From Haloarcula sp. DT43 (GTDB lineage Archaea; Halobacteriota; Halobacteria; Halobacteriales; Haloarculaceae), in contig NZ_JAYMGZ010000001.1 in NCBI RefSeq assembly GCF_037078405.1, positions 868,001 through 932,000 of the forward strand: a stretch of 64,000 nt of DNA. The letters run 5' to 3'. The first letter of the stretch is position 1; every line of letters begins with the position of its first letter. Below the pieces are notes generated by a model. It made no database searches. It was given only the letters and a program-made list of their open reading frames with translations, and had not been told where the DNA came from. This document shows positions 428-9,558 of this stretch, piece by piece. The position numbers and the translations under genes are program-made.

Positions 428-456
428 TATATAAGATATTAGACCAAATATCTGGT
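428..456 (+). promoter_or_regulatory. TATA box and overlapping dyads before the AbrB-like gene
   Basis: A TATA-like stretch at about 428-434 lies about 30 bases before the ATG at 465, a leaderless spacing. Just downstream are arms AGATATT (434-440) and AATATCT (447-453), and an imperfect palindrome of the form ACCAnATATnTGGT at 443-456. An operator overlapping the core promoter is a reasonable inference, and the AbrB-like product itself is the obvious candidate autoregulator. Confidence 0.45.
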
Positions 457-464
457 ATAATCGG

Positions 465-794
465 ATGAGCCTCAAAACCACCGTTCAGAAAGGGTCGGAC
501 GGACGGTTTCAGACCACCGTCCCAAAACGTCTCGGCACGAAGTACGACCTCGGCGGACAGCCAGTCGCATACCGAGTCGAATCCCGGGACAGAGTGAGCG
601 TCCTCCTCGACCCGAGCGACGACGATAAGACAACCACCATCCACAAGACCTCGAACGACCAGTTCAAGCTCAACCTCCCCACGGGGCTGGCCGATGCGAT
701 GCGCCTCAACGGAGCGACAATCAACTGGGACGAGACCGACTCGCTCACTCGAATCACCTTCAAAACCGTCCAGCGGCGTGATAACGATGAGTGA
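465..794 (+). CDS. AbrB/SpoVT-like DNA-binding protein with two similar halves
   Basis: The 109-residue protein reads as two swapped-hairpin-like halves, about residues 10-50 (GRFQTTVPKRL...) and 62-102 (DQFKLNLPTGL...). Each has the pattern 'xhxhxLPxxLxxxhxLxxG' of AbrB-type domains. Such proteins are small transcription regulators or antitoxins. No toxin is adjacent; the next gene is a serine recombinase whose ATG lies inside this gene (8-base overlap), so the two are co-translated. It probably regulates this recombinase operon, and a dyad at its promoter suggests autoregulation. An antitoxin role is possible but has no partner here. Confidence 0.65.
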   Translation: MSLKTTVQKGSDGRFQTTVPKRLGTKYDLGGQPVAYRVESRDRVSVLLDPSDDDKTTTIHKTSNDQFKLNLPTGLADAMRLNGATINWDETDSLTRITFKTVQRRDNDE

Positions 795-1512
795 ACCAGA
801 AGCCCGAACCGAGGCTCTGCGAGCGTACGGATACACCCGACTGTCCCAAGAGTCTCGTACCAGTATCGACGACCAGAAGGAGAGCATCACGGACTATGCC
901 GCCGACAGAGAGGGACTGAACCTCGTCGAAGTCCTCGACGACGGCCAGCACCAGACGGGCTACGAGACCGAATCACGGGCCGAGTACCGTCGCCTCACCG
1001 ACCTCATACAGTCGGGTGACGTGGACGCTGTGGTCATTCGAGGGGTTGAGCGGCTCGGGCGAGATTTCGATGAACGGCAGATGTTCATCATCTGGTGTCG
1101 GCAGAATGGCGTCGAACTCCACGACACCGAGCGAGGTCGAATTCCCATCGAGGACGAATACACGGCAGGCGTCGAGGGAATCCACGCCGCCTCCGACCAC
1201 AAAGGCAAGGAGAAGGAAATCGAGCGAGCCCGCAAAGCGGTACAGAAGCGAGTGGACGACCCTGATTGCTTTCACGGCGAGCCGCCGAAGGGCCTCACCT
1301 ACGACGAGGCGAAGCGAGGTCTCGTCGTGGACGATGAACAGCGAGAGGCGTTCGAGGAGGCGATGGAGGTCATCCGGTTTCGGGAAGACGGGCGTACGTA
1401 CACGGAGATAGAGACTAAGACCGGCGTCAACCGTGCTCGCATCTCTCGCATCTTGAATAAGCAGGCGGACTGGTTCAAGCGAGCGAATCGGCTGAAGAAC
1501 GGTGATACGTGA
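787..1512 (+). CDS. Serine site-specific recombinase (resolvase family)
   Basis: This 241-residue protein has the N-terminal resolvase domain. The catalytic serine is in YTRLS (Ser20), followed by the spaced S-x-x-x-Q and the VERLGRDF motif (residues 87-94) with its conserved arginines. After a charged helix comes a recombinase-type tail from about residue 155, ending in a helix-turn-helix (TYTEIETKTGV...RISRIL, residues 204-223). The ATG at 787 is chosen because it overlaps the preceding gene's stop; an upstream in-frame start at 694 would run through that gene. It likely inverts or resolves DNA within the element. The same tail occurs on the next gene. Confidence 0.85.
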   Translation: MSEPEARTEALRAYGYTRLSQESRTSIDDQKESITDYAADREGLNLVEVLDDGQHQTGYETESRAEYRRLTDLIQSGDVDAVVIRGVERLGRDFDERQMFIIWCRQNGVELHDTERGRIPIEDEYTAGVEGIHAASDHKGKEKEIERARKAVQKRVDDPDCFHGEPPKGLTYDEAKRGLVVDDEQREAFEEAMEVIRFREDGRTYTEIETKTGVNRARISRILNKQADWFKRANRLKNGDT

Positions 1513-2311
1513 TGAGTCAGAATCGCAATCCGAAGGTTGTGGAGGAAGCCAAAGAGCGGGACGATTTCACTTGTCAGAAGTGCGGTCTCCAAGACCCATC
1601 AACCGTAGAGGGACACCACATCGAGCCGCTGTCGGTCGGCGGAATCGATGCCGTTGAGAACGTCTCCACCCTCTGTGACTACTGTCACGACTTCGCACCG
1701 ATGAACATCCAACCGACCGACTTTGAAGCTGTGTTCCAGATATACGTCTCGACGGGGCTAACTCCTGACCACGACCTGCTCCTCTTCGGGAGTATGCTCC
1801 ACTCGGATATGGATTCCCATCAACAGGTGGCAGAGTCGCTCCACTACCTCTACGATAACTCGTTGACGATGCCGAATGCGTCGTTGGATATGCGGTGGAT
1901 TCAGGCTTCAAGAAAGGTGGACTACAGAGGGATTCGAGAGTACTTCCCCAAGGGGAGTAAGTGCGGGGTTCACGGTATGGACACCGAACTATCACGCCAA
2001 GCGATTCTCCAGCGTGTAGACGACCCTGACTGTTACCACGGCGAACCACCGAAGGGCTCACCTACGCCGACGACAATCGGACGCTCATCGTAGACGCCGA
2101 CGAGCGAGAGGAATTCGAGACGGCGATGGACGCCATCCGGCTCCGTGATGAGGGGAAGACGTACACCGAGATTATCGTCGAAACGGGCCTCGCTCGCTCA
2201 CGAGTCTCCCGCATCCTGAACAAGCAGAGAATATGGTTCGAGCGGGCGAACGCCCTCGACGAGTCCGACCTCGAAGCTCCAGCGGACCGTTCCCCCGAAA
2301 ACATCGGATAG
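1512..2311 (+). pseudogene. HNH endonuclease fused to a recombinase-type tail, frameshifted
   Basis: The ATG shares its A with the recombinase TGA. The N-terminal HNH domain is intact: CxxC (residues 21-24), the HH pair (35-36), Asn50 and CxxCH (55-59). From about position 2010 the frame enters a copy of the recombinase tail (RVDDPDCYHGEPPKG). Near 2055 one C is missing relative to the recombinase gene (GGCTC against GGCCTC), so the frame runs to a stop at 2093. The rest of the tail continues in the +1 frame to 2311 and is about two thirds identical by eye to recombinase residues 155-235. As it stands the protein would be a 193-residue HNH enzyme without its DNA-binding tail. A sequencing error at the C run cannot be excluded. 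Confidence 0.75.
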
Positions 2312-3784: not shown

Positions 3785-4053
3785 AACTCATTCTATATGT
3801 TTTATTTCAGTTATGATAAAAACGCTATACTGGAACACTTTCGCTCTCAAATAGACAAATTACAGTAAGCATCTTGCATACTTGCATAGATGCACCTGAG
3901 GTAAATTCACAGCCCGTCGCAAAGATGCGGCTAAGACGGGTGCAAACTTGGGTAACAAGTCAAATGGAAATCACTTTCACTGGGGCTGGCTCGGGTTCAT
4001 ACTCTCGCCCACAGTATGTTCACAGACCACTCCTCTTCTCTGGAGGGGCAAAC

Positions 4054-4851
4054 ATGTACAAAAATCAAATAAATTCAGTAGCCCAGACGAATCGGCAGTG
4101 GAACAGCATCTTATCGCTCATTTCGCAGGAGGGAATCGTCAAGCCACAGGATGCGACCCGAGTTGAGCCGAAGTCCTTCGAGCAGTTCCTCAACGACCGG
4201 GCCGATGAGGGATGGGTCGAGCGGTCAGCACATCTCTCGGGTGGTTGGCAGGCGGGTGACCGAGCCCGACACCTCATCCAACTGTCGCCCCGAGCGACTT
4301 ATCAACTCCGTCGAGGCGTTCCGTTCGAACGGGTTCGTACCGACATCATCGAGCGGGATGGAAGTCGATGCACGGTCTGTCGCCGCTTCGAGTTCCAAAT
4401 CCAGAAGGCAGGGTATCATCTCGAAGTCCATCACATCCAGCCCGTGCGAGAGGGAGGTAGAGACGAGCCAGCGAACCTCTGTACTGTCTGTGAATCGTGC
4501 CATAAGAACGTCATCCACGGGCATGGGATACGCCTCGCTCCAGAGGTCGGAACCGGGCCGGGAGCATCATGGCTAGTCTGTCGGTTCCTCTCGGAAATGG
4601 CCGTCATCGAGGTAGACCACATGTACAAGCGGGATTGTCCTCCGTACGAGCCCGGGCACGTCGTGAAGACGCTTCGGCAGTTGGAGAAGCGAGGTCTCGT
4701 GCGTCGCCTCGAACTTGAATCCCATCCGGCGAATCGTCGGCACACGTATTGCGTCGAGGAAGACCACGAACACGTTCTCATCCAGTATCCACACGAGAGT
4801 CGAGAAGAGTTAAGCGAGCGAGCCGCCGCTCAGTTCGGCCCCATCCGATAG
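4054..4851 (+). CDS. HNH endonuclease with flanking winged-helix-like regions
   Basis: The 265-residue protein has an HNH core at residues 104-155: CTVC (106-109), HH (126-127), Asn141 and CESCH (146-150), giving four zinc cysteines and the catalytic histidine. Before it lies a winged-helix-like region (about 15-80). After it lies another (about 172-222, ending in KTLRQLEKRGLVRRL), so the enzyme looks like wHTH-HNH-wHTH. The ATG is supported by a GGAGG 8 bases upstream (4042-4046); an open frame further upstream lacks domain character. The DEDD exonuclease gene starts 6 bases after its stop, so the pair is almost certainly co-expressed. A defence or element-maintenance role is inferred. Confidence 0.75.
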   Translation: MYKNQINSVAQTNRQWNSILSLISQEGIVKPQDATRVEPKSFEQFLNDRADEGWVERSAHLSGGWQAGDRARHLIQLSPRATYQLRRGVPFERVRTDIIERDGSRCTVCRRFEFQIQKAGYHLEVHHIQPVREGGRDEPANLCTVCESCHKNVIHGHGIRLAPEVGTGPGASWLVCRFLSEMAVIEVDHMYKRDCPPYEPGHVVKTLRQLEKRGLVRRLELESHPANRRHTYCVEEDHEHVLIQYPHESREELSERAAAQFGPIR

Positions 4852-6886: not shown

Positions 6887-7072
6887 ACTGATACTTTCAG
6901 CAAGTGGGTACAAAGATATTACCCAATAAGGAGGGGATTCAAGCTCGATTTACCCCCTTGATGTGAGTCATCCACAACAGTCGAGAATTCCGCTATGTAG
7001 AGATTCCCCGGTACAGACCTCCAAATCGTGCAGATTCGGCGGATTGTCGGGATGGGATATATAAAAGACGCT

Positions 7073-7492
7073 CACTTACAGGTGTTGTAAGTGGCAGAAA
7101 TGGTGTCTGTAAGTGAGACGGGGCGGTTCTATAACTAAGGGTCATTCTAATGCGTTAGAGTAATATTGGTAAATGAGCCGTTTTTTCAGGTTGACAGAGA
7201 ATTTATATAGATGTTATTCTTATTATCTATTGTAAGCCTCTTCGTTAGCCTGTGGTGTATCGTAACGACAGCGAAGCGAAGCGAAGCGTCGTTACGGAGA
7301 CCGGTTTTGTCACTTACAACACCTGTAAGTGACGGCTCTTTATACGTTACATCTTTTGAGGTTCACGCTGTCTGTCGGTTTCTGGTTGCTGGGGAGGCCT
7401 CCCACTTACAACCGTCATCGGAGAAACCTCGGAAATACGGCGGCATCTCTACGCTGTCTATCGGTTTCACTCACTTACACCGTTTGTAAGTC
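7073..7492. repeat. Iteron-like CACTTACA palindromes
   Basis: The octamer CACTTACA or its complement TGTAAGTG occurs at 7073, 7086, 7108, 7311, 7324, 7403, 7472 and (7 of 8 bases) 7485. Three pairs form palindromes with a 5-base spacer: 7073-7093, 7311-7331 and 7472-7492. The first two 21-base sites are exact reverse complements of each other, spacer included. The sites flank several TATA-like sequences and the AT-rich tract. Confidence 0.8.
7261..7296. repeat. Hairpin with GCGAA repeats in the loop
   Basis: Arms CGTAACGAC (7261-7269) and GTCGTTACG (7288-7296) are exact complements. The loop contains three direct GCGAA units (7271-7285). The hairpin sits between the CACTTACA palindromes at 7073 and 7311, next to an AT-rich tract, which would suit an origin or a transcript-end structure. 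Confidence 0.6.
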
Positions 7493-7608
7493 ATCGGCAT
7501 ATATTTAGTCCCTCTTGTCTAATATATCTGATAGGAATCACGAGGATTGGAGAAGGTATAGGACGGCGTTCATCGCCCCGGTCCTCCTCTCGTTCGTGTG
7601 CGAACACC

Positions 7609-8337
7609 ATGACAGAAGACAACGACAAAACCGAGACTCTCGCTACCGTGGCGAAGGAATCGGATACTGATACTCGCATCGACGCTCTTGAACAGCTTGT
7701 CCGCACGCTCGTGGCGGATAACGAGCAACTCAACGACAAGATAGAGTCGCTTGAATCAATTGTCGTCACACAGGCCCAAGAGGTAGAGACACTTCGGGAG
7801 AACGTGGACGACCTTGAAGACGACCTACTCAACCAGCGATTTCACTCTGAAGAGAGACTCGCATCTGTCCTGAAGCGGGTTACAAAGCTAGAGCAGTCGC
7901 TTGAGGCGGACGTGGATTATCGCATCGAGGCTCGATTATCGCCCGTGGAGCGGTATCTCATCTGGGGGCCAGAGGTGACTGAGACCAACAACACGGCAAC
8001 GGTTCGCCGGGCGGCGACGCTTGTTAAGCACTTTGCTGACTGGGCAGTTACGTCGGGTGATGGTCGCCCTCGCATCCTATCCAAGCCGAATAAGGAAGCT
8101 CCCCTGCGGGCCCGGATGCGTGATGCGTGCGGTGAGTCGCTTGAATGGGTCCAAATTTACCGAGCGATGGACAAAGCCGCAGACCTCTCTGATGGCAAGC
8201 TCATCTACGAGCAGAACGATAGGTTTGGACATATGCTGACACTCGCAGAAGGCGAAGACTGGCCCATCACGACCGAGGAGAGTCTACGGGAGGTTGAGGC
8301 GAAGGTCTCGGACGACTCGCAGTACGACGACCAGTAG
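7609..8337 (+). CDS. Coiled-coil protein, candidate binder of the adjacent repeats
   Basis: The 242-residue protein has a long coiled coil at about residues 20-105 (heptads such as LEQLVRTLVADNEQLNDKIESLE). A C-terminal globular region (about 120-215: TATVRRAATLVKHFADWAV, LRARMRDACGESLEWVQIYRAMDKAADLSDGKL) looks like a helical DNA-binding domain. I recall similar coiled-coil-plus-wHTH proteins on haloarchaeal plasmids and proviruses, without assigned function. It is the only gene reading out of the palindrome-rich tract, which makes it the best candidate for a protein that binds those sites, as replication or partition factor or repressor. Confidence 0.65.
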   Translation: MTEDNDKTETLATVAKESDTDTRIDALEQLVRTLVADNEQLNDKIESLESIVVTQAQEVETLRENVDDLEDDLLNQRFHSEERLASVLKRVTKLEQSLEADVDYRIEARLSPVERYLIWGPEVTETNNTATVRRAATLVKHFADWAVTSGDGRPRILSKPNKEAPLRARMRDACGESLEWVQIYRAMDKAADLSDGKLIYEQNDRFGHMLTLAEGEDWPITTEESLREVEAKVSDDSQYDDQ

Positions 8338-8523: not shown

Positions 8524-9558
8524 TCACCCTCTATCGGGGAACGTATCGTCGAACGACTTTTTCATCCCTCTGTCCGTGAAGTGGAGATAATGTCGCACTG
8601 TGTCGAGACTTGAGTGTCCTAAGATAGCTCTCAGGGTCTCTAAATCCATCTGTGGACTTCCAGACCGTTCCATACCTCTAACCGAATGGACAGCGAAGGA
8701 GTGACGGAGGGCCTTGGGCGTCACTCGTTTGTTTGATACACCGTCTGCCCGCTCAATTGTATTTTCTTGAATTCCTGCTTCTTCGGCGGCGAGACGTACG
8801 ATTTTATTCACTTGACGAGGGCTGATTTCGGGCGTATTATATCCGACAATCAGTTTGTCCGTCTCCTCAGAGTAAGGGAGTGAGCTTCGACCGCCACGAT
8901 TCATCCATTCTTTTAGCTTTCGACGAGTTGCCCGTGTGAAGAACACCTTCTTCTCGAAGTTATCCGCCCCTGAATCATCGACTTTCGAATTTTGAACATA
9001 TATCATTCGATTCTCAAGTTCTACGTCCTGTTGATTGATGGAACATATCTCGCTCGGTCGGCAACCCGTGTTCCACAATAGGCGTACCACGATTTCGTTC
9101 CTCAGCGGCGTCATCGGATGGCGACTTGCGCCCTCAATTAGTTTTGGAATCTTATCAAGCGGCAACCAGTGGATGCGGGGACCCTCTTGATGGGCTGTCT
9201 CGGTTCCTTTCTGCAACCAGTGTAGGATGTATCCTTTCTCCTGCCAGCCAAGCTCGGGGTCGATATGGTCGTTTAAATATTGGCGGACGGCATACCAGCG
9301 CTTTGCGACCGTTGAATGGGCCAGACCCCCGTAGTCCTCATCCGACAAAAAATACGAGAAGTCTTTGAGGTCAGTGTTGGTTAATTCGTCCAGTTCCAAC
9401 ACATATGTGTAAAGAAATGCGTCGAGTTGCTCAAGGGCTATCCGGGCTTGCTTGGCGTTCTCTGATGTGTTGTGGTTCTTTCTCCTCATCAGCCATTTCT
9501 CGGCCTCGGGAAAATCGTGATAGGTCTTCAAATCAGTCGTTCTGCCACTCATACTCAC
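8524..9558 (-). CDS. Tyrosine recombinase/integrase of the nth-inserted element
   Basis: The 344-residue protein has a SAM-like N-terminal core-binding domain (about 15-110) and a C-terminal catalytic domain. Catalytic residues are Arg167 (TGCRPSE), Lys192 in the beta-hairpin, Lys282-x-x-Arg285-His286 (PKALRHSF), His315 (LGHSS) and the nucleophile Tyr324 (VRHYLHF). The first histidine of the usual HxLRH box is lysine here, as in many archaeal XerC/D-like enzymes. The gene sits at the element edge with its start facing the truncated nth 42 bases away, as expected for the integrase that made the insertion. Confidence 0.9.
   Translation of the reverse strand: MSMSGRTTDLKTYHDFPEAEKWLMRRKNHNTSENAKQARIALEQLDAFLYTYVLELDELTNTDLKDFSYFLSDEDYGGLAHSTVAKRWYAVRQYLNDHIDPELGWQEKGYILHWLQKGTETAHQEGPRIHWLPLDKIPKLIEGASRHPMTPLRNEIVVRLLWNTGCRPSEICSINQQDVELENRMIYVQNSKVDDSGADNFEKKVFFTRATRRKLKEWMNRGGRSSLPYSEETDKLIVGYNTPEISPRQVNKIVRLAAEEAGIQENTIERADGVSNKRVTPKALRHSFAVHSVRGMERSGSPQMDLETLRAILGHSSLDTVRHYLHFTDRGMKKSFDDTFPDRG

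What the first reader, a model, noticed from the sequence alone, without database searches (positions are those of the whole stretch)
787..2311. Serine recombinase and HNH nuclease share the same C-terminal DNA-binding tail
The recombinase tail (from RVDDPDC to the RISRILNKQ helix-turn-helix) reappears after the HNH domain of the next gene; about two thirds of the compared positions agree by eye. The second copy is interrupted by a one-base loss near 2055 and then continues in frame +1. Two different DNA-cutting chemistries, one joining and one breaking, would thus be aimed by the same targeting module in one operon headed by an AbrB-like regulator. This could be an unusual recombinase/homing-nuclease unit, with the frameshift reflecting inactivation or a phase switch.
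Basis: partly seen in the sequence, partly recalled or inferred. Interest (0 to 1): 0.7.

Follow-up and report, generated by a model that had tools for sequence, protein, structure and literature searches.

The report
Recombinase DNA-binding tail fused to nuclease
In a salt-loving archaeon, the DNA-recognition end of a DNA-rearranging enzyme has been copied onto a DNA-cutting enzyme encoded right next to it; the copy was long kept intact by selection but is now broken by one missing base, so it is an unusual but single and probably decayed gene fusion.

Summary
A one-base loss in a CC pair (~2057) breaks the second copy, which continues in another frame to 2311. The shared piece is the recombinase's DNA-recognition unit (second half of helix E, arm, helix-turn-helix), its ordinary C-terminus across haloarchaea. 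The two copies are sisters (100/99 support), share private residues at family-conserved positions, and keep 9/11 recognition-helix residues. Divergence is strongly synonymous (dN/dS ~0.27), so the second copy was under protein-level selection before a recent frameshift. The HNH protein's only full-length relatives lack the tail, and no other HNH-tail fusion was found in 391 haloarchaeal genomes. I read it as a one-off fusion that aimed an HNH nuclease at the recombinase's site, on a ~30-kb integrated element, now probably inactivated. A scar of a second recombinase gene is the main rival. A phase switch is not supported. HNH nucleases with modular HTH tails are a known design; taking the tail from the operon's own recombinase is the new part.

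The parts
438..461 (.). imperfect dyad ATTAGACCA-AATATC-TGGTATAAT just upstream of the operon start; candidate operator or recombinase site
   Evidence: 9-bp arms, 8/9 complementary; only copy in the window at up to 3 mismatches; no functional evidence
465..794 (+). AbrB/SpoVT-like small DNA-binding protein, overlaps the recombinase start
   Evidence: tblastn similarity to the small genes 5' of relatives' recombinases; the same overlapping arrangement in most relatives examined
787..1512 (+). small serine recombinase (catalytic domain first, C-terminal HTH), P0001
   Evidence: PF00239 E 2.6e-15; invariant R18, S20, R89, R92; AF2 mean pLDDT 90; Foldseek to gamma-delta and Sin resolvases
1216..1506 (+). 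tail 1: second half of helix E, arm and HTH of the recombinase (residues 144-240)
1512..1976 (+). HNH nuclease body: HNH domain plus a C-terminal region shared with two tail-less relatives
   Evidence: PF01844 E 1.3e-9; full-length alignment with L037/L038 at 36/31%; profile hits over 169-172 positions only in G066, G231 and here
1980..2054 (+). tail 2, first part (helix E half and arm), in frame with the HNH body
   Evidence: 17/26 identical to the recombinase
2054..2059 (+). frameshift site GGGCTC (recombinase copy GGGCCTC): one base lost
2054..2311 (+). tail 2, second part (linker and HTH), in the other frame
   Evidence: 41/72 identical; AF2 HTH core pLDDT 93-97

Best explanation
A haloarchaeal AbrB-plus-serine-recombinase pair, carried on a ~30-kb integrated element, gained a third, overlapping gene: an HNH nuclease to whose end a duplicate of the recombinase's DNA-recognition unit (half of helix E, arm, HTH) was fused in frame. 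Mechanism (inferred): the recombinase binds its site as a dimer and cuts, rotates and rejoins; the HNH-tail protein read the same or a closely related half-site and cut there, which would force repair from, and so copying or keeping of, the DNA that carries the operon, much as homing nucleases or TnpB do. A one-base loss later removed the HTH; today's 193-residue product keeps the nuclease and the arm but not the HTH, so site-specific cutting is probably lost. Shown: homology, sister relation, purifying selection, frameshift, and (by distribution) direction of copying from recombinase to HNH, because the recombinase family regularly has the tail and the HNH family lacks it. Inferred: same target, homing role, loss of function.
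For: Homology far above chance. In the 60 loci fetched and scanned with flanks, and in the other relatives inspected, the tail belongs to serine recombinases or their remnants. Tails 1 and 2 are sisters, 100/99, sharing an extra residue (DDPDC) and private residues at conserved columns (GR->GE, P->V, R->T, T->R, Y->W). Recognition helix 9/11 identical with two conservative changes. In tail 2 the recombinase-specific K, E, I of helix E (conserved in 17-18 of 18) are lost while arm and HTH are kept, as expected of a module serving only DNA binding. dN/dS 0.27; in 20,000 neutral simulations at the same divergence none reached 57/97 identity or 50 third-position changes. The HNH body is full length against its tail-less relatives and the tail starts right at its end. 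Tail 2 is still predicted to fold as an HTH.
Against: A single example, and it is broken. No intact fusion elsewhere. The selection signal could stem from time spent in another recombinase rather than in the fusion. No target site identified. The relative-rate difference between the tails is only suggestive (23 vs 12 columns, P 0.09).
Confidence: 0.5

Rival explanations
1. Scar: the second tail is the displaced 3' end of a recombinase gene. An HNH gene arrived with its donor's recombinase tail (by homing or illegitimate recombination next to the recombinase), or a tandem second recombinase lost its front; the old tail was left downstream, in frame with the HNH by chance, never served the nuclease, and is now decaying.
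For: Explains the recombinase-type selection signal, the uniqueness, the tail-less HNH relatives and the frameshift; broken recombinase genes are common in these genomes.
Against: No trace of a second catalytic domain between 1512 and 1980 or nearby; the HNH body is complete and runs into the tail without a stop; helix-E residues kept in nearly all recombinases are lost just at the junction while the DNA-binding part is kept.
Confidence: 0.3
2. The missing base is a sequencing or assembly error and the fusion is intact and active today.
For: The tail frame is open for 85 codons after the break with protein-like third-position use; one base in a G/C-rich stretch of a 19-contig assembly.
Against: No reads available; the site is only a CC pair, not a long run.
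Confidence: 0.15
3. Programmed frameshift or phase variation switches between a short HNH and an HNH-tail protein.
For: Tail 2 is open in the -1 frame.
Against: No repeat tract; AAG GGC offers no canonical slippery heptamer (sequence).
Confidence: 0.03

Closest known systems
Small serine recombinases of the resolvase/invertase group (gamma-delta, Tn3, Sin)
   Same: Catalytic domain first, long helix E, arm, C-terminal HTH; conserved Ser and Arg; Foldseek E about 1e-7 to 2e-8
   Different: Haloarchaeal branch at about 15-22% identity to solved members; overlapped 5' by an AbrB-like gene; arm reads GEPP here instead of GRPP
HNH homing endonucleases with modular DNA-binding tails (I-HmuI, NUMOD-containing)
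   Same: Nuclease domain tethered to separate DNA-binding elements including helix-turn-helix (PMC3943268)
   Different: Here the tail comes from the neighbouring recombinase; no homing site or intron is known and the tail is frameshifted
IS607-type elements (serine recombinase TnpA with nuclease TnpB)
   Same: Serine recombinase next to a nuclease; TnpB is proposed to restore the element by cutting the emptied site (shown and proposed for IS200/IS605; PMC8612924)
   Different: TnpA of IS607 has its DNA-binding domain at the N terminus (PMC6188088 abstract) and TnpB is RNA-guided; here the DNA-binding domain is C-terminal and the nuclease is HNH with a protein tail
HNH protein of L037/L038 (G231, G066)
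   Same: Same ~155-residue HNH body, 36/31% identical over its length
   Different: Ends without the recombinase tail

Membership tests
Small serine recombinase | Resolvase catalytic domain with conserved Ser and Arg residues | tested here: met
   PF00239 E 2.6e-15; R18, S20, R89, R92 invariant in 24-26 relatives
Small serine recombinase | C-terminal helix-turn-helix after helix E | tested here: met
   AF2 helices 124-157, 183-200, 205-212, 216-224; Foldseek to gamma-delta/Sin
Small serine recombinase | Recombination at a specific site | not testable with these tools
   Only a candidate dyad 438-461 was seen
HNH nuclease | HNH domain with HH, N, H and CxxC pairs | tested here: met
   PF01844 E 1.3e-9; HH, N and CDYCH present in P0002
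HNH homing endonuclease | Gene sits in and cuts its own empty target site | not testable with these tools
   No empty or occupied pair of sites found for this gene
HNH homing endonuclease | Known NUMOD-type DNA-binding module | tested here: not met
   No NUMOD hit in P0002 or tail 2; the tail is of recombinase type
IS607 element | Recombinase with N-terminal DNA-binding domain | tested here: not met
   DNA-binding domain is C-terminal
IS607 element | TnpB (RuvC, RNA-guided) partner | tested here: not met
   Partner matches HNH models only

The most novel reading that the evidence does not exclude
A protein-guided counterpart of the TnpA-TnpB partnership: the recombinase and a nuclease on one transcript share one DNA-recognition module, so that the nuclease cuts the very site the recombinase acts on and drives retention or copying of the element; intact versions exist in unsampled haloarchaeal elements.
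Probability: 0.15. Interest if true: 0.75.

Novelty: new variant of a known kind. Interest (0 to 1): 0.42.

Why it matters
If the fused protein really read the recombinase's site, it would show how a mobile element can make a site-specific nuclease in one step, by copying the targeting end of its own recombinase. It would also give a protein-only parallel to TnpB-assisted element retention. Even as a dead fusion it is a clear record of module sharing between two DNA-breaking chemistries, with a testable prediction that both bind the same half-site.

Tried and rejected
Chance similarity: rejected (126 bits vs at most 22.7 in 200 shuffles). Tail as a widespread mobile module: not supported; outside this window every inspected copy is in a recombinase or its remnant, including odd-length frames checked with Pfam (one short frame, L140, is a recombinase-like remnant by eye without a Pfam hit). 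Neutral decay since duplication: rejected by simulation. Programmed shift or phase switch: no repeat or slippery site. Viral contigs: no relative of the recombinase, tail 1 or tail 2, and only HNH-domain matches for P0002; these scans use exact peptide patterns and reach only close relatives. The GTDB contig scan for P0002 gave five HNH-domain loci, none haloarchaeal. No second copy of the upstream dyad within 3 mismatches in the window. IS607 membership: domain order and partner do not fit. A literature search for HNH plus serine recombinase plus fusion plus haloarchaea found no paper in the held library.

Full report
What is there. The window is haloarchaeal (contig 1, 868001-932000, of a 3.75-Mb assembly in 19 contigs); plasmid matches to a neighbouring chromosomal gene point to Haloarcula or a near relative. 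Three genes overlap head to tail: an AbrB-like gene (465-794), a serine recombinase (787-1512) and an HNH gene (1512-2093). Pfam gives Resolvase E 2.6e-15 and HNH E 1.3e-9.

The repeat. DNA identity is 68%, with differences concentrated at third codon positions (50 of 94). Shuffled controls reach at most 22.7 bits against 126 observed. The change of frame is the loss of one C (GGGCCTC to GGGCTC).

What the shared piece is. A model of the recombinase (mean pLDDT 90) has a long helix E (124-157), then an arm, then a helix bundle with HTH (183-237); its best solved relatives include gamma-delta, Tn3 and Sin resolvases and large serine integrases. The shared piece starts inside helix E and runs to the end: by analogy with gamma-delta resolvase (general knowledge) it is the part that grips DNA, without the catalytic and main dimer-forming parts. 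The second copy alone is still predicted to form the HTH (core pLDDT 93-97), though it has no significant match in a PDB fold search (best E 0.35).

Where the tail occurs. In 391 class-level genomes, 61 had a match to the tail itself and 152 to a profile of such tails. I fetched 60 of these places with their flanks: the tails belong to serine recombinases or their broken remnants, no fetched flank gave an HNH hit, and only the window has HNH plus tail. For the HNH body, 186 genomes share the bare domain, but full-length relatives were seen only in G066 and G231, and these end where the tail begins here. Within the genus (32 genomes) there is no second example. GTDB contigs and viral contigs gave none, at limited sensitivity.

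History. The two tails are sisters with 100/99 support and share an inserted residue and several private residues at otherwise conserved columns. Because the recombinase family regularly has the tail and the HNH family does not, the copy most simply went from recombinase to HNH. dN/dS is about 0.27; in 20,000 neutral simulations none reached the observed protein identity or third-position excess. So the second copy was a working protein part for most of its existence, either in the fusion or, on the scar reading, in another recombinase. At the junction the helix-E residues K, E, I, kept in nearly all recombinases, are lost, while the arm and HTH are kept, which I take as mild support for a life in the fusion. 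After the break there are still 85 open codons, so the frameshift is young or an error.

Mechanism. With nearly the same recognition helix (9/11), both proteins probably read the same or a closely related half-site. Helix-turn-helix tails on HNH and other homing nucleases are an established design (PMC3943268), and a nuclease that cuts the emptied site of its element, aiding its restoration, has been proposed for TnpB (PMC8612924). By analogy I infer that the intact fusion would have cut at the recombinase's site. None of this is tested, and the present product lacks the HTH.

Setting. The operon lies on a ~30.4-kb low-G+C island (about 0.48-0.57 against about 0.69 around it) with a tyrosine integrase at its right end (8524-9558, PF00589 E 2.3e-23). 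The island interrupts a chromosomal endonuclease III-type gene whose front half lies in a longer open frame in sister species. It also carries a second HNH protein with a winged-helix-like end (4033-4848).

Limits. One locus, no reads, a sample of 391 genomes, and pattern-based scans elsewhere. The uniqueness claim holds only within these.

Noticed in passing
window 9598 and L178:15190 (C1:847190 to C1:877598): A ~30.4-kb low-G+C element with a tyrosine integrase (8524-9558) splits a chromosomal endonuclease III-type gene at its FPV-DTHVHR motif; the ends share GCGTCTT-CC-GT, relatives match its front half at 69-92% identity, and four further HhH-GPD genes remain in the genome.
   Followed up: partly
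L122, L123, L124, L125, L126, L128, L176, L083, about 70 nt upstream of the AbrB-like start: Perfect inverted repeats of the form 6-7 bp arm, 2 or 6 bp gap, arm (GAAACC-CC-GGTTTC, AGGTATC-CC-GATACCT, CAGAAA-N6-TTTCTG), at one position but with differing arm sequences: candidate recombination or operator sites; not at that place in the window.
   Followed up: partly
window 465-794 and most recombinase loci fetched: A short AbrB/SpoVT-like gene overlapping the recombinase start is a conserved two-gene unit in haloarchaea; its function is unknown.
   Followed up: partly
window 4033-4848: A second HNH protein on the same element, with a MarR/winged-helix-like C-terminus (weak Pfam matches below cut-off for that part).
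   Followed up: no
window 7060-7500: Several copies of palindrome-like CTTACA...TGTAAG motifs in a stretch before the gene at 7609; iteron-like, possibly an origin or partition site (seen by eye).
   Followed up: no
L138, L139, L142, L144, L146, L147: Frameshifted or stop-broken copies of this recombinase family are frequent in haloarchaeal genomes.
   Followed up: partly
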